Assembly (NCBI RefSeq): GCF_004403465.1
Contig: NZ_SOGQ01000009.1
Span: 62,344-126,343, forward strand
Length of the DNA: 64,000 nucleotides
DNA from: Cryobacterium sinapicolor
GTDB lineage: Bacteria; Actinomycetota; Actinomycetes; Actinomycetales; Microbacteriaceae
Direction of reading: 5' to 3'
The notes below the pieces were generated by a model. It worked only from the letters and a program-made list of their open reading frames with translations. It was not told the origin of the DNA and did no database searches. Position 1 is the stretch's first letter. Each line of letters starts with the position of its first letter. Both the position numbers and the translations under genes were made by a program. Shown here in pieces: positions 18,982 to 27,332 of this stretch.

Positions 18982-19614
18982 ATGACCGAGTCGCCGGAGA
19001 CGACCCTGCCGATGTTCCCGCTCGGATCGGTGCTGTTCCCCTACATGCCGCTGCAGCTGCGCGTGTTCGAGGACCGCTACCTGGTCATGCTGTCGCGCAT
19101 CCTCAAGGAGGAGCCGGCCGAGTTCGGCGTGGTGCTGATCGAACGCGGCCAGGAGGTCGGCGGCGGCGAGCGGCGGTTCCGGTTCGGGACCGTGGCCCAG
19201 ATCACCGAGCTCGAGGCCTCCGAGGGCTTCGTCGGGGTGACCGCCCAGGGCGAACGCCGGATCGAGGTCGTGGACTGGCTGACCGAGGACCCGCACCCCC
19301 AGGCCACGGTTCGTCACCTGGACGCGCTGGACTGGGACGACGACCTGCTGCCGCTGCGGGAACGGGCCGAGCAGGCCGTGCGACGTGCCCTGGCCCTCGC
19401 GAGCGAATTCGCCGACCAGCTCTGGCCGTCGACGGTGGAACTGTCCCGGGATCCGACGGCGGCCGCCTGGCAGATCGCCGGAATCGCCCCGCTGGGTCCG
19501 CTGGACCAGGTCGAACTGCTGCGGTCGACCTCGATCGAGCAGCTCCTCACCGCGGTGATCGACTTCACCCAGGACGCCGTGGACTCCCTGAGCGCGCCCT
19601 GGCCCGACGAATAA
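18982..19614 (+). CDS. LON substrate-binding (LonN) domain protein
   Basis: A 210-residue stand-alone LonN/PUA-like domain protein. The N-terminus LPMFPLGSVLFPYMPLQLRVFEDRY is typical of Lon N-terminal domains. The ATPase and protease domains of Lon are absent. Such proteins occur widely in actinobacteria; their function is unknown, possibly substrate recognition in proteostasis. It starts 17 bp after the Lrp gene and could be cotranscribed with it. The strong AT-rich promoter region of the next module follows. Confidence 0.85.
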   Translation: MTESPETTLPMFPLGSVLFPYMPLQLRVFEDRYLVMLSRILKEEPAEFGVVLIERGQEVGGGERRFRFGTVAQITELEASEGFVGVTAQGERRIEVVDWLTEDPHPQATVRHLDALDWDDDLLPLRERAEQAVRRALALASEFADQLWPSTVELSRDPTAAAWQIAGIAPLGPLDQVELLRSTSIEQLLTAVIDFTQDAVDSLSAPWPDE

Positions 19615-19620
19615 CCCGAA

Positions 19621-19668
19621 TCTATTTGATAAATTCATCATATAGGTATATAAAGAAGTAATGATGTA
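19621..19668 (+). promoter_or_regulatory. AT-rich promoter/operator of the hydrogenase-4-like operon
   Basis: A conspicuously AT-rich stretch in GC-rich DNA. TGATAAATTCATCA (19627-19640) is a 14-bp near-palindrome, and TATATA just downstream is a possible -10 element. The block begins CTATTTGA (19622-19629), and the same octamer occurs upstream of the arsR gene at the far end of the operon (minus strand, 27325-27332). That suggests a shared regulator. Confidence 0.55.
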
Positions 19669-19689: not shown

Positions 19690-20175
19690 TTGAGCGTCAA
19701 ACGACTCACGAAGCTCATCCGAACCAGTGGGCGCATCGCCGAAGCGGCCCCGCCTGCCCCGGCCCTGTTCCCGGGCGCCGAGGTCTTCGGCGGCAGCGTT
19801 CAGGTGCGCTTCATCAACGGCGGCGGCTGCAATGACTGCGCGATGGAGGTGCAGAGCGCGTTCGGCCCGGTCTACGACGTCGAGCGCTACGGCATCCGTC
19901 TGGTCGCGTCGCCGCGCCACGCCGACGTGCTCGTGATCACGGGCGCCGTGACCCGCAACCTGATCGAGCCCCTGCTGCGCACCATCGACGCCACGCCGAC
20001 CCCCCGCTTCGTGATCGCCGTCGGCGACTGCGCCATCACCGGCGGCGTCTTCGCCGACGGCTACGGGGTGGCCGGTCCGGTTTCCGATTTCGTGCACGTG
20101 GACCTGTCCGTGCCGGGCAACCCGCCCGAGCCGGCCGTCATCGCCCTGGCTCTGCGCCGGATGACCGGCCGATGA
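19690..20175 (+). CDS. Hydrogenase-4/complex I-like small subunit (HyfI/NuoB family), ligand altered
   Basis: A 161-residue small subunit of the NuoB/[NiFe]-hydrogenase family, which normally holds the proximal/N2 4Fe-4S cluster. Cys47 and Cys50 (GGGCNDCAMEV) and Cys114 (VGDCAITGGVF) are in place. The fourth ligand, usually PGCPP, is Asn144 (VPGNPPEP). ASPRHADVLVITG is a family hallmark. The cluster may have a non-Cys ligand or be a 3Fe type, or be lost (inference). The TTG start at 19690 has GGAG about 7 bases upstream. The gene overlaps the next by 4 bp and leads the operon, as Rv0082 does in M. tuberculosis. Confidence 0.85.
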   Translation: MSVKRLTKLIRTSGRIAEAAPPAPALFPGAEVFGGSVQVRFINGGGCNDCAMEVQSAFGPVYDVERYGIRLVASPRHADVLVITGAVTRNLIEPLLRTIDATPTPRFVIAVGDCAITGGVFADGYGVAGPVSDFVHVDLSVPGNPPEPAVIALALRRMTGR

Positions 20176-22190
20176 CAGCCCTCGAAGCCGGGATGCTCAG
20201 CCAGACCCTGCTGCTGGTGGTCGCCATCGCCGCGGCCCTCGCCACCCCCCTCTCCTGGCGTTCCCGGGTCAGCGGAACCTTCTGCACCCTGCTCGCCGCG
20301 GCCGGCATCGTCACCGGCGCGATCGCCCTCGCCGGCGGCACCGGTTCGCTGAGCATCCCCACCGCCCTCCCGATGGACCCGCTCGCACTCTCCCCCGACC
20401 GCCTCGGCGGCCTTGTCATGGTGGTCGTCTCCGTGGTCGGCGTGCTCGCCTCCCTGTTCGGGATCGGCTCGGCCCGCGTCGCCTCCGCCTCCCGCACCGC
20501 CTGGCTGTCGATGGCCGTGTTCCTCTTCGGCATGCAGCTGGTGCCGGCCGCCACCGATGTGGTGTCGTTCCTGCTGTTCTGGGAGATCATGACGCTCGGT
20601 TCGACGGCGCTGCTGCTGGCCCACCATGCCACCCGCGGCACGGTCGCCTCCGCCCTGGTCTGGTACTCGGCGATGTCGCAGCTGAGCTTCTTCTTCGTGC
20701 TGGCCGGCTTCGCCATGCTCGCCGGCCTGGCCGGCGGCACCGGGTTCGCCGACCTCGCCACGATCGATCCCTTCACCTGGCAGGCGAGCGTCGCGTTCCT
20801 GCTGCTCCTGCTCGGCTTCGGCGGCAAGGCCGAGCTCGTGCCCCTGCACGTCTGGGTTCCCCGGGTGCTGCCCGAGGCCCCCGGCCATGTCGCCGCCGCG
20901 ATGAGCGGGGCGATGGTCAACATCGGCGTCTACGGCGCCCTCCTCGTCGTCGTGCGGCTGCTGCCCGACGGCCCGGCTTGGTGGGGCGTGCTGATCATGG
21001 CGCTCGGCGGGGTGTCCGCGCTCTACGGGATCCTGCAGGCCTCGGTGGCGAGCAACCTCAAGGTGCTGCTGGCCTACTCCACGACCGAGAACATGGGGCT
21101 GGTGTTCCTGGGGCTCGGCGCATCCGTTCTGCTGCGCGCCGACAACGCCACGGCCGCAGCCGACGCGGCCCTCGTCGCCGCCCTGCTGCTGATGCTCAGC
21201 CACGCCGCGTTCAAGTCCACCCTGTTCCTCGGCGCGGGCGCCGTGGCCCGCGCGGCCGGCGAGATGAACCTCGACCGACTCGGCGGCCTCGGCAGCCGGA
21301 TGCCGTGGACCGCCGCCGCCTTCGGCGCGGCCGCCATGGGTGCCGCGGCCCTGCCCGTCACGAGCGGGTTCGTCGCCGAGTGGATGCTGCTGCAGGCCCT
21401 GATCCACGGCTCCCGGGTCGACGGGGAGGTCGTCTCCGTCGCGGCATCCGTCGCCATGCCGCTCGCGGTCGCCGTGATCGCCCTCACCGCCGGGCTGGCA
21501 CTGCTCACCTTCGTCAAGGCCTACGGGATCGCCTTCCTGGCCCGCCCGCGCTCCCAGGAGGCCAAACAGGCCCGCGAGGTACCCGTCATCATGCGCATCC
21601 CGCTCGCGATCGGCGCCCTGCTCGTGATCGGGCTCGGCGTGCTGCCCGGGCCGCTCGCCGTGGCCATCGGCGGCGCCGTGGGCCCCGAGTTCACCCCGGA
21701 CGTGCGCACCATCGGCCTCGCGGGCATCGACGCCCGCGGCATCGACGCCGTGCTCGACCCCATCACCTTCGTGGTGCTGGCCGGGCTCCTGCTGGTACCC
21801 GTGCTGATCGTTCTGTTCCTCTCCGCCCGGCGCCACCCCACCCGCACCTCGCCGCTCCCCTGGGCCGGCGGCGGGTCCCGGCTGCGCCCACGGATGCAGT
21901 ACACGGCCACCTCCTACGCCGAGCCGCTGGTGCGCGTGTTCGACGACGTGCTCCGGCCCTCCCGCGACGTCGAGGTCACCCACGCGGGCGAATCCCGCTA
22001 CCTGGTGGAACGCGTGCACGTGGAACAGAGCGTGTCCGACGTGGTCGAGACCCGGCTCTACCGCCCGGTGCTGAACCTCATGCAACGAGCAGGCATCCTG
22101 GCCCGACGCGCGCAGAACGGCAGCATCCATCGCTACCTGTCCTACTCCTTCGTCGCCCTGCTGGTCGTTCTGATCGTGGTGTCCCTGTGA
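20172..22190 (+). CDS. Proton-translocating antiporter-like membrane subunit (HyfB/NuoL type)
   Basis: A 672-residue polytopic membrane protein of the NuoL/M/N-Mrp antiporter superfamily. Key charged residues for proton transfer are kept: Glu in LLFWEIMTL, Lys in GFGGKAELVPLHVWVP, and Lys in SHAAFKSTLFLGAG. PLHVWVPRVLPEAPGHVAA is the core signature. A C-terminal extension with the soluble segment RPSRDVEVTHAGESRYLVE and a last membrane helix resembles HyfB. It begins in a 4-bp overlap with the small subunit and ends in a GTGA overlap with the next gene. It probably forms one proton channel of the complex. Confidence 0.9.
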   Translation: MTALEAGMLSQTLLLVVAIAAALATPLSWRSRVSGTFCTLLAAAGIVTGAIALAGGTGSLSIPTALPMDPLALSPDRLGGLVMVVVSVVGVLASLFGIGSARVASASRTAWLSMAVFLFGMQLVPAATDVVSFLLFWEIMTLGSTALLLAHHATRGTVASALVWYSAMSQLSFFFVLAGFAMLAGLAGGTGFADLATIDPFTWQASVAFLLLLLGFGGKAELVPLHVWVPRVLPEAPGHVAAAMSGAMVNIGVYGALLVVVRLLPDGPAWWGVLIMALGGVSALYGILQASVASNLKVLLAYSTTENMGLVFLGLGASVLLRADNATAAADAALVAALLLMLSHAAFKSTLFLGAGAVARAAGEMNLDRLGGLGSRMPWTAAAFGAAAMGAAALPVTSGFVAEWMLLQALIHGSRVDGEVVSVAASVAMPLAVAVIALTAGLALLTFVKAYGIAFLARPRSQEAKQAREVPVIMRIPLAIGALLVIGLGVLPGPLAVAIGGAVGPEFTPDVRTIGLAGIDARGIDAVLDPITFVVLAGLLLVPVLIVLFLSARRHPTRTSPLPWAGGGSRLRPRMQYTATSYAEPLVRVFDDVLRPSRDVEVTHAGESRYLVERVHVEQSVSDVVETRLYRPVLNLMQRAGILARRAQNGSIHRYLSYSFVALLVVLIVVSL

Positions 22191-23137
22191 CCGGCGCCGC
22201 GGCGATCATCATCGCCCTCGTCCAGCTGGTGCTGTTCGTGTTCCTCGCCCCCGTGTTGATCGGGGTGATCCGCCAGGTGCGGGCCCGCCTCGAGGGCCGG
22301 GCCGGTTCCGGCATCTGGCAACCGTGGCGCGATGTGCGTAAGCTCCTGGCGAAGAACCCGGTGCGCGCCGCCGGCAGCAGCTGGATGCTCGCAGCCGGCC
22401 CAGTCACCCTCCTGGTCTCCAGCCTGCTGCTCTGCGCCCTGCTGCCGCTGGTCGGCACCCTGCCGCTGCCGCTGATCCCCAGCGACCTGTTCGTGATCGT
22501 TTCCGTCATGCTGATCGGCGTCGTGGCCCTGGCCCTGGTCGGCCTCGACGCCGGCACCGCGTTCGGCGGGATGGGATCCAGCCGGCACATGACCGTCGCC
22601 GCCCTGGTCGAGCCGACCCTGCTGCTTGCGGTCTACGCGCTCTCCATCCCGGCCGGCACCTCGACGCTCTCACTGATCGTGGAGACCCGGCTCGCCAACC
22701 CGGCCGTGATCATCTCCCCGGTCAGCCTGCTGGCCATGGTCGCGCTGGCGATCGCCATCATGGCCGAGACCAGCCGCCTGCCGGTCGACAACCCGTCGAC
22801 CCACCTCGAACTGACCATGCTGCACGAGGCCATGGTGCTGGAGGCGTCCGGCCGCGACCTGGCCTGGCTCGAACTCGGCTCCTGGCTCAAGCTGGCGGCC
22901 CTGCTCGGCCTGCTCAGCAACCTGATCGTGCCGTGGGGCATCGTGACCGACTTCTCGGTGCTCGGCGTCATAGTCGGCGTGGGCACCGTCACCGTGAAGG
23001 TCCTGCTGCTGGGCGTCGTGCTCAGCGTGGGTGAGGTCTTCCTGGCCAAGGCGCGGCTGTTCCGCGTGCCCGAGCTGCTGGCGGGGTCGTTCGCCCTGGG
23101 CCTGCTGGCCGTCACCGCTTCTTACCTGGTCGCTTAG
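22187..23137 (+). CDS. Membrane anchor subunit, NuoH/HyfC-like
   Basis: A 316-residue membrane protein of the complex I subunit 1 family. It links the peripheral and proton-pumping parts. Signatures are ARLEGRAGSGIWQPWRDVRKLL at the first cytoplasmic loop and ETSRLPVDNPSTHLELTMLHEAMVLEASG, the hydrogenase-4-type version of the NuoH acidic loop. Eight or so membrane segments follow. The GTG start at 22187 overlaps the preceding TGA. It corresponds to hycD (Rv0084) in the M. tuberculosis order. Confidence 0.9.
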   Translation: MTGAAAIIIALVQLVLFVFLAPVLIGVIRQVRARLEGRAGSGIWQPWRDVRKLLAKNPVRAAGSSWMLAAGPVTLLVSSLLLCALLPLVGTLPLPLIPSDLFVIVSVMLIGVVALALVGLDAGTAFGGMGSSRHMTVAALVEPTLLLAVYALSIPAGTSTLSLIVETRLANPAVIISPVSLLAMVALAIAIMAETSRLPVDNPSTHLELTMLHEAMVLEASGRDLAWLELGSWLKLAALLGLLSNLIVPWGIVTDFSVLGVIVGVGTVTVKVLLLGVVLSVGEVFLAKARLFRVPELLAGSFALGLLAVTASYLVA

Positions 23138-23145
23138 GAGCATCC

Positions 23146-23802
23146 GTGTTCACCACCGTTTACCCGCAGTTGATCGGCCTCTGCACAGGCGCCCTGCTGC
23201 TCACCAGCGCCCTGATGGTCTGGCGGCACTCGCTGCTGGCGTCCATCCGACTGCTCAGCGTGCAGGGCTTCGCGCTGGCCGCGCTGGTCGCCGTGATCGG
23301 CGTGGAGGAGGGCGAGCTCGAGGTGATCCTCGTGGCCGTGCTCGTGCTGCTGGTCAAGGGCATGGCCCTGCCCTGGGTACTCGCCCGCGAGACCCATGCC
23401 ACCACGCGAACGGATGAGGCGCCGCGCCTCAACCCGACGGCGGCCCTCCTGACCGTGGCACTGCTCACCATCCTCAGCTACGTCGTCGCCAGCCGACTGC
23501 TCACCGGCGACACCAGCATCTCGGCCCACGCAGCCCCGATCGGCCTCGCGATGGTGCTGATCGGGTTCCTGCTGCTGGTCACCCGCCGGCAGGCCGGATC
23601 GCAGCTGATCGGCTTCCTGGTGCTCGACAACGGAATCGCCACCGTCGCGTTTCTGACCTCGGGCGGCGTGCCGCTGTTCCTCGAGCTCGGCATCTCCCTG
23701 GACGTGCTGCTGGTGGTCGTCATCCTGTACGTCTTCGCCGGCCGTATGCGCAACAAGTTCGGCAACACCGAGATCGATCAGCTCAGAAAGTTGCACGACT
23801 GA
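23146..23802 (+). CDS. Membrane subunit, HyfE/NuoK-like
   Basis: A 218-residue membrane protein with about six to seven segments, similar to HyfE, whose C-terminal half is NuoK-like. Acidic residues sit within or near helices (GVEEGELEVILVAVLVLLVKG and LVLDNGIATVAF). The C-terminal tail GRMRNKFGNTEIDQLRKLHD is typical of HyfE. It is 8 bp after the NuoH-like gene and overlaps the next start by one base (TGATG). It corresponds to hycP (Rv0085). Confidence 0.87.
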   Translation: MFTTVYPQLIGLCTGALLLTSALMVWRHSLLASIRLLSVQGFALAALVAVIGVEEGELEVILVAVLVLLVKGMALPWVLARETHATTRTDEAPRLNPTAALLTVALLTILSYVVASRLLTGDTSISAHAAPIGLAMVLIGFLLLVTRRQAGSQLIGFLVLDNGIATVAFLTSGGVPLFLELGISLDVLLVVVILYVFAGRMRNKFGNTEIDQLRKLHD

Positions 23803-25397
23803 TGTCCTTCGCCCTCTGGACCCCTCTGGCCATCCCGGCCGTCCTCGCCCTGCTCAGCCTCGTCGTTCCCTCCCCCGCGCTGCGCCGGCTCAGCCCCGTC
23901 GCCTCCAGCGTCGCGGTGCTCGTCTCCGGTCTGCTCCTGGTGAGCGCCGTGCTCGCGGACCAGGTTCCGACTCTGGCCGGCGGGCTGCTCCGCGCGGACG
24001 CGCTGAGCGCCTACATGCTCACCGTGGTCGGCGCCGTCGGGCTCGTCTCAACCTGGGGCGGGCTCGGCCACGCCGGCAACGTTCCCGCCCGGTTCGCCGG
24101 CTCCTACGATGCCCTGATCTCCGTATTCCTGGCCGCGATGAGCCTCGCGGTGATCGCGGACAACATCGGTCTGATGTGGGCCGCGGTCGAGGCCACTACC
24201 ATCGCCACGGCCTTCCTGGTCGGCCACCACCGCACCCCCCGCTCGCTGGAGGCCGCCTGGAAGTACGTCATCCTCGGCTCCGTCGGCGTGGCCATCGCCC
24301 TGCTCGGCATCGTGCTCATCTACGCCGCCTCCCGCGGCACCGGCGAGGCCACCCTCTCCTGGCTCGTGCTCAGCCAGGCCGGCCTGCCGCTCGACCCCGC
24401 GCTGATCCGCGCCGGCGGCGCCCTCGCCGTGCTCGGCTTCGCCACCAAGGCCGGGCTCGCCCCCATGCACAGCTGGCTGCCCGACGCGCACAGCCAGGCG
24501 CCGGCACCCGTCTCCGGGCTCATGTCGGGCGTGCTGCTCGCGGTCGCCCTCTACGCGATCCTCCGCATCCAGACCATCACCGACGCCGTGATCGGGCCGG
24601 ACTTCCTGCGCATCATGCTCAGCGTCGGCGGGTTGCTCTCCCTCTTCGTAGCGGCGGCGCTCCTGATCCGCCAGCGCGACTTCAAACGGATGCTGGCCTA
24701 CTCCAGCATCGAGCACATGGGAATGATGGCCATCGGCGCGGCCATCGGCGCGGCGGCCCTGCCGGCCGTGCTGCTGTACGTGCTCGGCCACGGGTTGACG
24801 AAGGCGACGCTGTTCGTGATCTCCGGGCGCATCCTCGAGGTCGAGGGCACCCCGAAGATCGACGACGTGCGCGCCCTGCTCGTGCGGCGACCGGGCCTGG
24901 CCGTGCTGTGGCTGATCGCCATGGCCGCCCTGATCGGATTCCCCCCGTTCAGCATCTTCTTCTCCGAGGTCGGCATCATCGTGGCCGGCTACGCGACAGG
25001 CATGGGCGTGGTGGTCGGCATCGCGCTGGTGCTGCTCCTCGTGATCTTCGCCAGCCTCACCCGTCTGACGGTGGCCATGACGATCGGGGCGCCGGTAGCG
25101 CAGACTTCGGCTTCGGTTGCGGCCCCGGCTGCGGTTCTGCCCTCGGCGGCTGCGCCCGGCATCGACGTCACCGGAGCGATGACCGGCGTGGTCCCCGCGG
25201 CCGGCGTCGGCGCATCCGTCACCCCGGTCGACGCCGAGCCTCGCCCGGAGGCGCCTATCGTGCCGGACCGGTCGGGCCACGGGCCGATGCTGCCGCTCAT
25301 CCTGGCCCTGGGCACCACCGCGGTGGTGGCCTTCATCGCCGAACCGGTCGGCACGCTCCTGACGCGTGCGGCCGAGGTTCTGGGAGGAATCCAATGA
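23802..25397 (+). CDS. Second antiporter-like membrane subunit (HyfF/NuoN type)
   Basis: A 531-residue NuoL/M/N-family channel. Retained residues are Glu in LMWAAVEATTIATAFLVG, Lys in GFATKAGLAPMHSWLPDAH, and Lys in GHGLTKATLFVISGRI; LAYSSIEHMGMM is also present. Unusually, before the last helix there is a ~75-residue Ala/Pro/Val-rich insertion (from about PVAQTSASVAAP to PDRSGHG). It is probably a periplasmic or cytoplasmic linker. It corresponds to hycQ (Rv0086). The stop overlaps the next ATG by 4 bp. Confidence 0.88.
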   Translation: MSFALWTPLAIPAVLALLSLVVPSPALRRLSPVASSVAVLVSGLLLVSAVLADQVPTLAGGLLRADALSAYMLTVVGAVGLVSTWGGLGHAGNVPARFAGSYDALISVFLAAMSLAVIADNIGLMWAAVEATTIATAFLVGHHRTPRSLEAAWKYVILGSVGVAIALLGIVLIYAASRGTGEATLSWLVLSQAGLPLDPALIRAGGALAVLGFATKAGLAPMHSWLPDAHSQAPAPVSGLMSGVLLAVALYAILRIQTITDAVIGPDFLRIMLSVGGLLSLFVAAALLIRQRDFKRMLAYSSIEHMGMMAIGAAIGAAALPAVLLYVLGHGLTKATLFVISGRILEVEGTPKIDDVRALLVRRPGLAVLWLIAMAALIGFPPFSIFFSEVGIIVAGYATGMGVVVGIALVLLLVIFASLTRLTVAMTIGAPVAQTSASVAAPAAVLPSAAAPGIDVTGAMTGVVPAAGVGASVTPVDAEPRPEAPIVPDRSGHGPMLPLILALGTTAVVAFIAEPVGTLLTRAAEVLGGIQ

Positions 25398-26938
25398 CGA
25401 AGCCGAGCCAGCTGTCAGCCGGCACCCCCGAGGTGCGCACGCTCACCCGCGACGAGCTGCGGGACGTAGTCGCCGCACTGCTGACCGAAGGCAACCGGCT
25501 CGCGCTGGTGGCCTGCCACGACGACGGCGACCGACTGCGCGTGGTCTACTCCTTCGTGGCCGTCTTCCCGCGGCGCCAGATCGACCTCGTCGTGCCGATC
25601 CCCTACGACGACGCCTGGATTCCGAGCCTGGCCGACCTCTCGTTCCCGGCCGGCAACTTCGAGCGCGGCACCCGCGACCTGTTCGGGGTGCGGCCGGCGA
25701 ACCACCCCCAGCCCCACCGGCTGGTGCGCCACGGGCACTGGCCCCGCGGCTGGTACCCGATGCGCAAAGACGCACGGGACACCCCCGAATTCGAGCCCGA
25801 CGTCGAGTCGTTCCCGTTCGTGGAGGTCGAGGGGCCCGGGGTCTACGAGATCGCGGTCGGCCCCATCCACGCCGGCATCATCGACCCCGGCCACTTCCGT
25901 TTCTCCGTGGTCGGCGAGACCATCGTGCGGATGGAAGCCCGCCAGTGGTACATGCACCGCGGCGTCGAGCGGCTCTTCGAGGGCCGTCTGCCCGAGGACG
26001 GTCTCGCAATGGCCGAGCAGATCGCCGGAGACACCGTGATCGGCCACACGCTGGCCTACGTCATGGCGATCGAAGCGGCCTCCGGCCTCGAGGTCTCCGA
26101 GCCCGACCGCCTGCTACGCGCCCTGCTGCTCGAACTCGAACGCCTCTACAACCATGTCTCCGATCTCGGATCGCTGGCCAACGACGTGGGGTTCAGCGTC
26201 GTGAACTCGCACACCCAGCGGCTGCGCGAAACGCTGCTCCGGATCAACAAGTCCGTCACCGGGCATCGATTCCTGCGCGGGGCGCTGTCGGTGGGCGGGG
26301 TGAACGTGCTCACCCTGCCGGATCCCGACGACCTGCGCCGGATCGCCGCCGACGTGCAGGAGATCATCGCAATCACTCTCGGGCACGCGATCGTACGGGA
26401 CCGGTTCAGCGGCACCGCCCCGCTGCCAACCGCCCTGGCCGAGGCCATGGGCACGCTGGGCTACGTGGCGCGGGCATCCGGTATCGACGCCGACGCCCGA
26501 CGCGACCACCCCTTCGTCGATCTCGGCGAACACTTCCACGTGGTCACTGATACCGGCGGCGACGTGCTCAGCCGTTACCGGGTGCGGGCCGGCGAGTTCG
26601 AGGTCTCCGTCGCGGTGGCGATCGACCTGATCGGCCGGCTGGGCGCGCACCGCGGCGACGTTGCCGCTGTGGCCGCTCCGGCGGCGACGGATGCTGCGTC
26701 GACGGCCGCGGCGACACCGGATACCCGCAGCGGCCTCGCCCTCGTGGAGGGGTGGCGCGGAACCATCTGCCACCGGGTCGAACTGGGCCGAGACGGCGCC
26801 ATCACCCGGCTCAAGGTCGTCGACCCGTCCTACTTCAACTGGCCGGCGCTGCCGGTGGCTCTGTCCGAAACGATCGTGCCGGACTTCCCCCTGGTGAACA
26901 AGAGCTTCAACCAGTCCTACGCCGGCAACGACCTCTAG
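25394..26938 (+). CDS. NuoC-NuoD/HyfG-like large subunit without NiFe ligands
   Basis: A 514-residue fusion of a 30-kDa (NuoC-like) domain, ending near DLFGVRPANHPQPHRLVRHG, and a 49-kDa/large-subunit domain. In [NiFe] hydrogenases the large subunit has CGxC near the N-terminus and DPCxxC at the C-terminus. Here the corresponding segments are AEQIAGDTVIGHTLAYVMA and VVDPSYFNWPAL, with no cysteine; I count only two cysteines in the protein, both elsewhere. So it cannot bind a NiFe centre and resembles complex I in that respect. It corresponds to hycE (Rv0087). It converges on the ArsR gene with a 12-bp gap. Confidence 0.88.
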   Translation: MTKPSQLSAGTPEVRTLTRDELRDVVAALLTEGNRLALVACHDDGDRLRVVYSFVAVFPRRQIDLVVPIPYDDAWIPSLADLSFPAGNFERGTRDLFGVRPANHPQPHRLVRHGHWPRGWYPMRKDARDTPEFEPDVESFPFVEVEGPGVYEIAVGPIHAGIIDPGHFRFSVVGETIVRMEARQWYMHRGVERLFEGRLPEDGLAMAEQIAGDTVIGHTLAYVMAIEAASGLEVSEPDRLLRALLLELERLYNHVSDLGSLANDVGFSVVNSHTQRLRETLLRINKSVTGHRFLRGALSVGGVNVLTLPDPDDLRRIAADVQEIIAITLGHAIVRDRFSGTAPLPTALAEAMGTLGYVARASGIDADARRDHPFVDLGEHFHVVTDTGGDVLSRYRVRAGEFEVSVAVAIDLIGRLGAHRGDVAAVAAPAATDAASTAAATPDTRSGLALVEGWRGTICHRVELGRDGAITRLKVVDPSYFNWPALPVALSETIVPDFPLVNKSFNQSYAGNDL

Positions 26939-26950
26939 CCGCGCCTCGGG

Positions 26951-27292
26951 CTACTGCGTGTCCTGCTCGATGGTGCGGAGCAGGGCGTTGGAGTGCTCGA
27001 GGCTGGTCACGAGCATCCGCTTGGAGATGGCCAGGAGCTGGGCGACGCCCGGGTCGCGCAGGGCGTAGAAGATGGTGTTGCCGTCGCGGCGGGTGACGAC
27101 CACGCCGGCACGGCGAAGGACACCCAGTTGCTGGGAGAGGTTGGACAGTTCGGCGCCGAGCACCTCGGCGAGGCTGCCGACCGACCGTTCCCCGCCGACG
27201 AGCTGCTCCAGAACCTGCACTCGCAACGGATGCCCGAGCGCCTTGAAGAGGTCGGACTTCAATTGGGCCATGGGGAGTCCGGTCGCTGACAC
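26951..27292 (-). CDS. ArsR-family regulator next to the hydrogenase-4-like operon
   Basis: A 113-residue winged-helix regulator. KSDLFKALGHPLRVQVLEQL, SVGSLAEVLGAELSNLSQQLGVLRRAGVV and RRDGNTIFYALRD form the ArsR DNA-binding core. No typical metal-binding cysteine motif is seen. The start may be GTG 27292 or ATG 27271 (MAQLKSDLF); neither has a strong Shine-Dalgarno. In M. tuberculosis the related locus carries Rv0081, an ArsR-type regulator, but divergent at the front. Here the gene is convergent at the rear. It shares the octamer CTATTTGA in its promoter with the operon. Confidence 0.88.
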   Translation of the reverse strand: MSATGLPMAQLKSDLFKALGHPLRVQVLEQLVGGERSVGSLAEVLGAELSNLSQQLGVLRRAGVVVTRRDGNTIFYALRDPGVAQLLAISKRMLVTSLEHSNALLRTIEQDTQ

Positions 27293-27296
27293 CGTT

Positions 27297-27332
27297 TGAT
27301 CATATCGCTAACCTGTAATACTTTCAAATAGG
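27297..27332 (-). promoter_or_regulatory. Candidate arsR promoter/operator
   Basis: Read on the minus strand the region is CTATTTGAAAGTATTACAGG, then GTTAGCGATATGATCAAA. TTTGA and TCAAA form widely spaced inverted half-sites. The CTATTTGA block recurs at 19622-19629 upstream of the operon's first gene. It is the only AT-rich stretch nearby. Confidence 0.45.

What the first reader, a model, noticed from the sequence alone, without database searches (positions are those of the whole stretch)
19690..26938. Hydrogenase-4-like membrane complex without a hydrogenase active site
Six overlapping genes encode a small subunit, two antiporter-like channels, NuoH-like, HyfE-like and NuoCD-like subunits. 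The large subunit lacks both cysteine motifs needed for NiFe. There is no NuoI/HyfH ferredoxin subunit, no NADH module (NuoEFG) and no maturation gene in view. Proton-channel lysines and glutamates are kept in both antiporter subunits, so pumping is still selected. The order matches M. tuberculosis Rv0082-Rv0087, whose function is also unsettled. An energy-converting complex with an unknown electron donor and acceptor is the strongest candidate here for an undescribed system.
Basis: partly seen in the sequence, partly recalled or inferred. Interest (0 to 1): 0.75.

Follow-up and report, generated by a model that had tools for sequence, protein, structure and literature searches.

The report
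Hydrogenase-like pump losing its redox parts
Cold-loving Cryobacterium carry a membrane machine related to hydrogenases and respiratory complex I that has lost its metal catalyst and part of its last iron-sulphur site but keeps its ion-pumping parts, which suggests it may move ions without the usual electron chemistry.

Summary
In detail: six intact genes at 19690-26938 encode a hydrogenase-4-like complex without NiFe ligands, in a Cryobacterium genome with no detectable HypD or NuoF. The class is known: an energy-converting hydrogenase-related (Ehr) complex of the M. tuberculosis Rv0082-Rv0087 type, beside an Rv0081-like ArsR gene.

New here: the small subunit has also lost one of the four cysteines of the last Fe-S cluster (N2). 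It is Asn, Ser or Thr in 32 of 32 distinct intact Cryobacterium genes, but Cys in 63 of 66 other loci of the same type; the 3 exceptions are its nearest kin. A second-sphere N2 arginine is gone too. Two of these kin keep only one of the four cysteines, yet their operons stay intact under purifying selection. The tree needs at least four changes of this kind; all 19 loci that keep NiFe cysteines keep all four N2 cysteines.

Best reading (0.45): an ion-translocating complex no longer driven by normal electron transfer. Main rival: an MBS-like cluster with one open iron.

Side result: a distant Ehr branch, mostly with altered N2 sites, lies under fluoride riboswitches, where papers speak of formate hydrogen lyase. 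No such switch was found in this window.

The parts
19622..19645 (+). Palindrome CTATTTGAT-N6-ATCATATAG upstream of the operon, candidate ArsR operator
   Evidence: Only place in the window with up to 3 mismatches, 0.01 expected; similar element upstream in 9 of 12 other Cryobacterium loci inspected
19690..20175 (+). Small subunit (EhrS/NuoB/HyfI-like), 161 aa, TTG start
   Evidence: PF01058 E 9.9e-27; best solved relatives FHL subunit 7 and MbhJ
19828..19839 (+). Codons of Cys47 and Cys50 (first and second N2 ligands) and the two between
   Evidence: Sequence; C in 36 of 36 Cryobacterium rows
20029..20031 (+). Codon of Cys114 (third N2 ligand)
   Evidence: Sequence; C in 36 of 36 Cryobacterium rows
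20119..20121 (+). Codon of Asn144, where the fourth N2 cysteine stands in HycG and MbhJ (PGNPP for PGCPP)
   Evidence: Alignments; N 10, S 20, T 2 in 32 distinct Cryobacterium rows
20172..22190 (+). HyfB-like antiporter subunit, 672 aa
   Evidence: PF00361 E 1.7e-41; NCBIfam hydrogenase 4 subunit B model E 3.3e-150, below its cut-off
22187..23137 (+). NuoH/HyfC-like subunit, 316 aa (GTG start inferred; the ORF list starts further upstream)
   Evidence: PF00146 E 1e-31
23146..23802 (+). HyfE-like membrane subunit, 218 aa
   Evidence: NCBIfam NF008556 E 3.2e-17, below its cut-off; no Pfam match
23802..25397 (+). HyfF-like antiporter subunit, 531 aa
   Evidence: PF00361 E 5.5e-55
25394..26938 (+). 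Large subunit (EhrL/NuoCD/HyfG-like), 514 aa
   Evidence: PF00346, PF00329 and PF00374 matches; best solved relative HycE; predicted fold best match 7z0s_E
26018..26020 (+). Codon of Gln209, where relatives have Arg (second-sphere Arg of N2, R141 position of Yarrowia)
   Evidence: R in 71 of 71 four-cysteine Ehr rows and 19 of 19 NiFe rows, Q in 32 of 32 Cryobacterium
26024..26047 (+). AGDTVIGH, in place of the CGxC NiFe motif
   Evidence: [AST]GDT conserved in the close relatives
26903..26935 (+). SFNQSYAGNDL, in place of the DPCxxC NiFe motif, at the C-terminus
26951..27292 (-). Rv0081-like ArsR regulator gene, convergent with the operon
   Evidence: Best solved match Rv0081, E 8e-27; kin gene near the operon in the relatives
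27318..27331 (-). CTATTTGA half-site upstream of the ArsR gene

Best explanation
Shown: an intact, selected six-gene Ehr operon of the Rv0082-Rv0087 type, with two antiporter-like subunits, no NiFe ligands, no ferredoxin or NADH module, no complex-I quinone ligands (the H95 and Y144 positions are I163 and G212), and an N2 site with three of four cysteines and a changed second sphere (Q209 for R, A51 for E). Shown in two operons from nearby genera: one of four N2 cysteines left in an intact operon. Inferred: the complex moves H+, and perhaps another ion, through its antiporter-like and NuoH-like subunits; it is not driven by electron flow through a NiFe site and a normal N2; the former redox arm now binds a ligand or senses a state and gates the ion path, in the manner of Mrp- or DAB-like non-redox machines. 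The Rv0081-like ArsR protein probably controls it through the CTATTTGA palindrome. In Cryobacterium itself a three-cysteine cluster may still be bound.
For: NiFe ligands absent and replaced by conserved residues. Fourth N2 cysteine lost in 32 of 32 distinct Cryobacterium rows, R209 and E51 changed in the same clade. L147 and L148 keep one of four cysteines, with no ferredoxin domain in the small subunit. dN/dS 0.06-0.30 in seven Cryobacterium pairs, 0.11-0.17 between L147 and L148. Ion-path residues kept in all classes. At least 4 changes of ligand state on a 63-row tree; 19 of 19 NiFe-type loci keep all four N2 cysteines. No recurrent redox partner gene among 30 representative loci. No NuoF or HypD in the genome. 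Shared operator-like element.
Against: Cryobacterium keeps the other three cysteines in 36 of 36 rows (weak, since 67 of 121 core positions are invariant), which would suit a bound cluster. MBS shows that a three-cysteine proximal cluster can be catalytic. 71 of 121 NiFe-less loci keep all four cysteines, so electron transfer is probably still the rule in the wider class. The zero-cysteine and L241-L248 clades carry a ferredoxin-like domain fused to the small subunit. Some first-antiporter residues are less kept in the class with two or fewer cysteines (K297 5 of 12, H226 8 of 12). No transport was measured, and no structure of the whole complex was predicted.
Confidence: 0.45

Rival explanations
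1. A redox enzyme with an open-site cluster: three cysteines hold a [4Fe-4S] or [3Fe-4S] cluster whose remaining iron is free or held by Asn/Ser/Thr and acts as the catalytic site, as in Pyrococcus MBS, which reduces sulfane sulfur at a proximal cluster with three cysteine ligands.
For: Three cysteines kept in 36 of 36 Cryobacterium rows with the fourth N, S or T; MBS precedent (PMC7684303, passages).
Against: MBS gets electrons through an extra subunit with two clusters; none recurs here. In MBS a different cysteine is out of reach. The N2 second-sphere Arg is gone. Nearby genera lose two more cysteines.
Confidence: 0.27
2. An ordinary Ehr oxidoreductase: an external donor (for example a soluble formate dehydrogenase or ferredoxin) still passes electrons through a modified N2 to an unknown acceptor, and pumping is redox-driven.
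For: Two FdhF/YdeP-family proteins and a NarG exist elsewhere in the genome; formate-linked roles have been proposed for other Ehr complexes (PMC6349859 and PMC7894505, passages).
Against: No partner gene recurs beside the operon; quinone ligands absent; N2 ligands lost in this clade.
Confidence: 0.15
3. A decaying remnant of a hydrogenase or Ehr complex.
For: Progressive loss of ligands in the clade; 2 of the 10 same-genus genomes listed had no match; one small-subunit gene (L068) is frameshifted in its record.
Against: Six intact genes in nearly all loci held, dN/dS well under 1, conserved channel residues, conserved replacement motifs.
Confidence: 0.1
4. A working hydrogenase or formate hydrogenlyase.
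For: Overall similarity to HycE/HyfG.
Against: 0 of 4 NiFe cysteines; no HypD in the genome.
Confidence: 0.01

Closest known systems
Ehr complexes of actinobacteria, Rv0082-Rv0087 type
   Same: Six-subunit order, GDT and SYAGND motifs, Rv0081-like ArsR neighbour
   Different: The fourth N2 cysteine and the second-sphere Arg are lost in the window's clade; ArsR has moved to the 3' side, convergent, in Cryobacterium
Hydrogenase-4 / formate hydrogenlyase (HyfB-I, HycC-G)
   Same: Homologous subunits
   Different: No NiFe cysteines, no ferredoxin subunits HyfA/HyfH, no formate dehydrogenase or maturation genes beside it
MBS, Pyrococcus sulfane reductase
   Same: NiFe-less relative with a three-cysteine proximal cluster
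   Different: A different cysteine is out of play; MBS has a two-cluster electron-input subunit and more membrane subunits; more distant in sequence, large subunit 45.5 bits against 184.4 for HycE
Respiratory complex I (NuoB-CD-H-L/M/N)
   Same: Fold and ion-path residues
   Different: No NuoEFG or NuoI; quinone-ligand positions changed; N2 ligand lost
Fluoride-riboswitch 'formate hydrogen lyase' operons
   Same: The examples fetched are Ehr-like with none of the four NiFe cysteines; 7 of the 9 riboswitch-headed ones have altered N2 ligands
   Different: Distant branch, other gene order, two of three groups with a fused ferredoxin domain; no fluoride switch in the window or its genome

Membership tests
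Ehr complex | Homologues of group 4 hydrogenase small, large, NuoH-like and antiporter-like subunits in one operon | tested here: met
Ehr complex | Lack of the cysteines that bind NiFe (definition as given in PMC6349859 and PMC10284858, passages) | tested here: met
   A, T, S, G at the four positions
Ehr complex | Charge translocation coupled to a redox reaction (suspected function) | not testable with these tools
   No assay; sequence evidence speaks against a normal redox path
[NiFe] hydrogenase / formate hydrogenlyase | CGxC and DPCxxC ligands in the large subunit | tested here: not met
[NiFe] hydrogenase / formate hydrogenlyase | Hyp maturation genes in the genome | tested here: not met
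   HypD 0 matches in the own genome; other Hyp proteins not tested
Respiratory complex I | NADH module and quinone ligands | tested here: not met
   PF01512 0 matches; H38 and Y87 of Nqo4 align with I163 and G212
MBS-like sulfane reductase | Proximal cluster with one non-cysteinyl iron, fed by an MbsN-like subunit | tested here: inconclusive
   Three-cysteine pattern present, but a different cysteine is missing; no recurrent electron-input gene; the cluster itself cannot be tested here

The most novel reading that the evidence does not exclude
A lineage of complex-I-like machines has given up electron transfer: in genera near the window's the complex has no redox centre that I could identify and runs as an ion transporter gated by its former redox arm, with Cryobacterium as an intermediate. 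The fluoride-riboswitch operons called formate hydrogen lyase are a parallel branch serving pH or ion balance or fluoride export, not formate metabolism.
Probability: 0.3. Interest if true: 0.87.

Novelty: new variant of a known kind. Interest (0 to 1): 0.62.

Why it matters
How complex I couples electron flow to distant proton pumping is still debated. Close relatives with four, three and one of the N2 cysteines, all keeping the ion path, offer a natural series for asking what the membrane arm does when evolution removes the redox driver. It bears on what Rv0082-Rv0087-type complexes do, a question called open in print, and it suggests that 'formate hydrogen lyase' in fluoride regulons is, at least in the operons seen here, a misnomer.

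Tried and rejected
Hydrogenase or formate hydrogenlyase: rejected on ligands and HypD. Complex I variant: rejected on NuoF and quinone-ligand positions. Decay: disfavoured by dN/dS and intact operons. A fluoride role for the window itself: not claimed, no fluoride riboswitch in the window, in 7 other loci of its clade or in its genome. 'All ligand-losing complexes are cofactor-free': dropped after ferredoxin-like domains were found fused to the small subunit in two clades. Conserved redox partner: none found; the other recurrent ORFs that I looked at lie antisense inside the operon. The small-subunit model was poor (mean pLDDT 54.8) and not used; the large-subunit model (72.1) supports the fold only, and its residues 107-179 and 485-514, which hold part of the site, are under 50. 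Paper searches returned mostly unrelated papers. The founding Ehr paper (2013) was seen only in reference lists; the 2012 fluoride paper and the 2011 Rv0081-Rv0088 paper are not held. So I cannot say whether loss of N2 ligands in Ehr is already in print; the listings of searches and the passages opened showed no statement of it.

Full report
What is there. Six ORFs on the + strand, 19690-26938, overlap except for one 8-bp gap and match small subunit, HyfB, NuoH/HyfC, HyfE, HyfF and NuoCD/HyfG. The best solved relatives of the large and small subunits are E. coli formate hydrogenlyase and Pyrococcus MBH subunits; the predicted large-subunit fold has 7z0s_E as its best match. The window is from Cryobacterium: 30 of the first 31 loci returned by the named-genome scan (L063-L093) carry that name; the other (L075) has a record titled Acidobacteria, but the same sequence sits in a genome of the window's family.

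NiFe site. Against HycE and HyfG, CGIC reads AGDT in the window and DPCYSC reads NQSYAG. In relatives of the same type the motifs read [AST]GDTxxGH and SFNxSYAGND with few exceptions. I hold 146 loci with both subunits; 5 same-genome duplicates and L068 (frameshifted small subunit) leave 140. At least three of the four NiFe cysteines are kept in 19 of them (two are the E. coli references; L250 has three), and these form two separate clades. L055 keeps one. So no near relative still holds the NiFe site.

Genome context. In the whole genome PF00374 matches only this operon, HypD 0, PF01512/NuoF 0. Five antiporter-domain matches: two here, two on contig C59 (probably Mrp, not checked) and one next to a DabA gene. 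A NarG and two FdhF/YdeP-family proteins lie elsewhere. In the family 15 of 398 sampled genomes have a related large subunit, among them 8 of the 10 same-genus genomes listed.

The NuoB-like subunit holds the last cluster with four cysteines. The window keeps C47, C50 and C114, but the fourth is Asn144 (PGNPP for PGCPP). In 36 Cryobacterium rows (32 distinct; L068 left out) the first three are always C; the fourth is S 20, N 10, T 2 in the distinct rows. Among the other loci of the same type (large-subunit pattern [AS/T]-T-S-G, or L147, whose end is cut off) 63 have all four cysteines and 3 do not: L146, L147 and L148, which are the nearest rows to Cryobacterium in the tree (a starred set of seven rows). 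In the same clade large-subunit R209 is Q (A in L146), against R in 71 of 71 four-cysteine Ehr rows and 19 of 19 NiFe rows, and small-subunit E51 is A or P, against E in 69 of 71 and 19 of 19. R209 lies 20 residues after the HRGxE arginine and 3 before G212. In Yarrowia complex I R121 and R141 have that spacing, both are second-sphere residues of N2, and Y144 and H95 are quinone ligands (PMC8042128, passages); by the gapless Nqo4 alignment the H95 and Y144 positions are I163 and G212 here. In other ligand-losing clades R209 is kept, so this change is not general. Invariance of three cysteines in Cryobacterium is weak evidence for a cluster, because 67 of 121 core positions are invariant there.

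Nearby genera go further. L147 and L148 (two other genera of the family by the tool's group codes; 56-72% identity to the window over six subunits) keep only the second cysteine. Pfam finds only Oxidored_q6 in their small subunits. dN/dS between them is 0.11-0.17 in the six genes (dS near 1, so rough) and 0.06-0.30 in seven Cryobacterium pairs. Ion-path residues are kept in all classes: second antiporter K216, K295, E304, H330, K334 in 144 of 144 rows, first antiporter E306, H344, K348, E403 in 135 of 135 (of 146 rows, 11 and 2 gave no usable sequence; duplicates and L068 included). Less kept in the class with two or fewer cysteines: first-antiporter K297 (5 of 12) and H226 (8 of 12). An intact, selected complex with one of four N2 ligands is unlikely to depend on electron transfer through a normal N2.

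Convergence. On a 63-row large-subunit tree made without the four NiFe columns, four cysteines against fewer needs at least 4 changes (quick tree, SH-aLRT only, one very long branch, L058; the count cannot tell gain from loss). Unique counts: 19 NiFe-type loci, all with four N2 cysteines; 121 others, of which 71 have four, 35 three, 4 one, 7 none, and 4 (L237-L240) lack the fourth and have a rearranged third region. The sample was drawn by similarity, so these are not frequencies in nature.

Fluoride link in a distant branch. Fluoride riboswitches (RF01734) lie on the operon strand directly upstream of the operon, or upstream of one leading gene, in L149, L150, L241, L244, L246, L248, L237 and L240 above the gathering score and in L226 at 33.3 bits against 34: 9 of 11 testable loci of that branch; L235 and L236 have none, L057 and L059 are cut off. 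L246 and L248 of these nine keep four N2 cysteines; the other seven do not. None was found in the window, 7 others of its clade, 7 four-cysteine Ehr loci, 6 other Ehr loci including L058 of the same branch, L242 and L251, or 8 NiFe loci. The remaining loci were not scanned. Neighbours there include enolase, pyrophosphatase, CrcB, DUF190, UspA, MFS and dynamin-like genes. Two papers name formate hydrogen lyase as a fluoride-riboswitch target (PMC11139923 and PMC8004769, passages); the operons seen here carry none of the four NiFe cysteines. Caveat: the zero-cysteine clade and the L241-L248 clade have a ferredoxin-like domain fused to the small subunit. The window's genome has no fluoride riboswitch.

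Regulation. The ArsR gene at 26951-27292 has Rv0081 as best solved match. An ArsR kin is the one recurrent neighbour among 30 representative loci, though that cluster may hold paralogues; a hit was absent in several loci. It is usually upstream of the small subunit, in Cryobacterium downstream and convergent. The palindrome upstream of the operon is seen in the window and 9 of 12 other Cryobacterium loci, not in L076, L078, L088; CTANNTGA stands before the ArsR gene in all 13, CTATTTGA in 7. In M. tuberculosis the counterpart operon is reported as regulated by Rv0081, once as a putative hydrogenase (PMC6901956, passages) and once as an Ehr complex of unknown function that is not a hydrogenase (PMC6728331, passages). 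The likely Mycobacterium locus here (L046) has four N2 cysteines.

Mechanism. Proposed: an ion-translocating complex whose former redox arm gates or senses. Shown are the patterns of conservation and loss; inferred are membrane location, ion movement, gating, direction and ligand. The main rival, an MBS-like open-iron cluster, has a real precedent (PMC7684303, passages).

Known or new. The class is known and its function open. I saw no statement about loss of N2 ligands in Ehr in the listings of searches or in the passages opened, but the founding Ehr paper was not read.

Noticed in passing
L149 11310-11380, L150 11032-11120, L241 3582-3643, L244 16065-16126, L246 13864-13924, L248 3642-3706, L237 5529-5595, L240 10276-10339: Fluoride riboswitches upstream of Ehr-like operons without NiFe cysteines, where papers speak of formate hydrogen lyase.
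   Followed up: partly
L226 11248-14139: Small subunit and antiporter subunit are one continuous reading frame, with a ferredoxin-like N-terminus.
   Followed up: no
L248 3691-5490 and counterparts in L241, L244, L246: A dynamin-like GTPase gene next to the operon in this fluoride-linked group.
   Followed up: no
Four-cysteine Ehr small subunits, position 118 in window numbering: 59 of 71 rows have an extra cysteine four residues after the third ligand, absent in the window's clade.
   Followed up: no
L068 4045-4548: The small-subunit frame of Cryobacterium breve ERMR7:08 shifts in its second half as recorded; left out of the ligand counts.
   Followed up: no
L075 / L146: A record titled Acidobacteria bacterium carries the same sequence as a genome placed in the window's family, so its title is probably wrong.
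   Followed up: no
L250 large subunit: Three of four NiFe cysteines; the first motif reads CGAD.
   Followed up: no
L062 9362-13530 (window genome, contig C2): A DabA gene beside an antiporter-like gene, a probable inorganic-carbon transporter pair.
   Followed up: no
window 18982-19614: A LON substrate-binding-domain gene lies just upstream of the operon on the same strand; it did not come up as a recurrent neighbour.
   Followed up: partly
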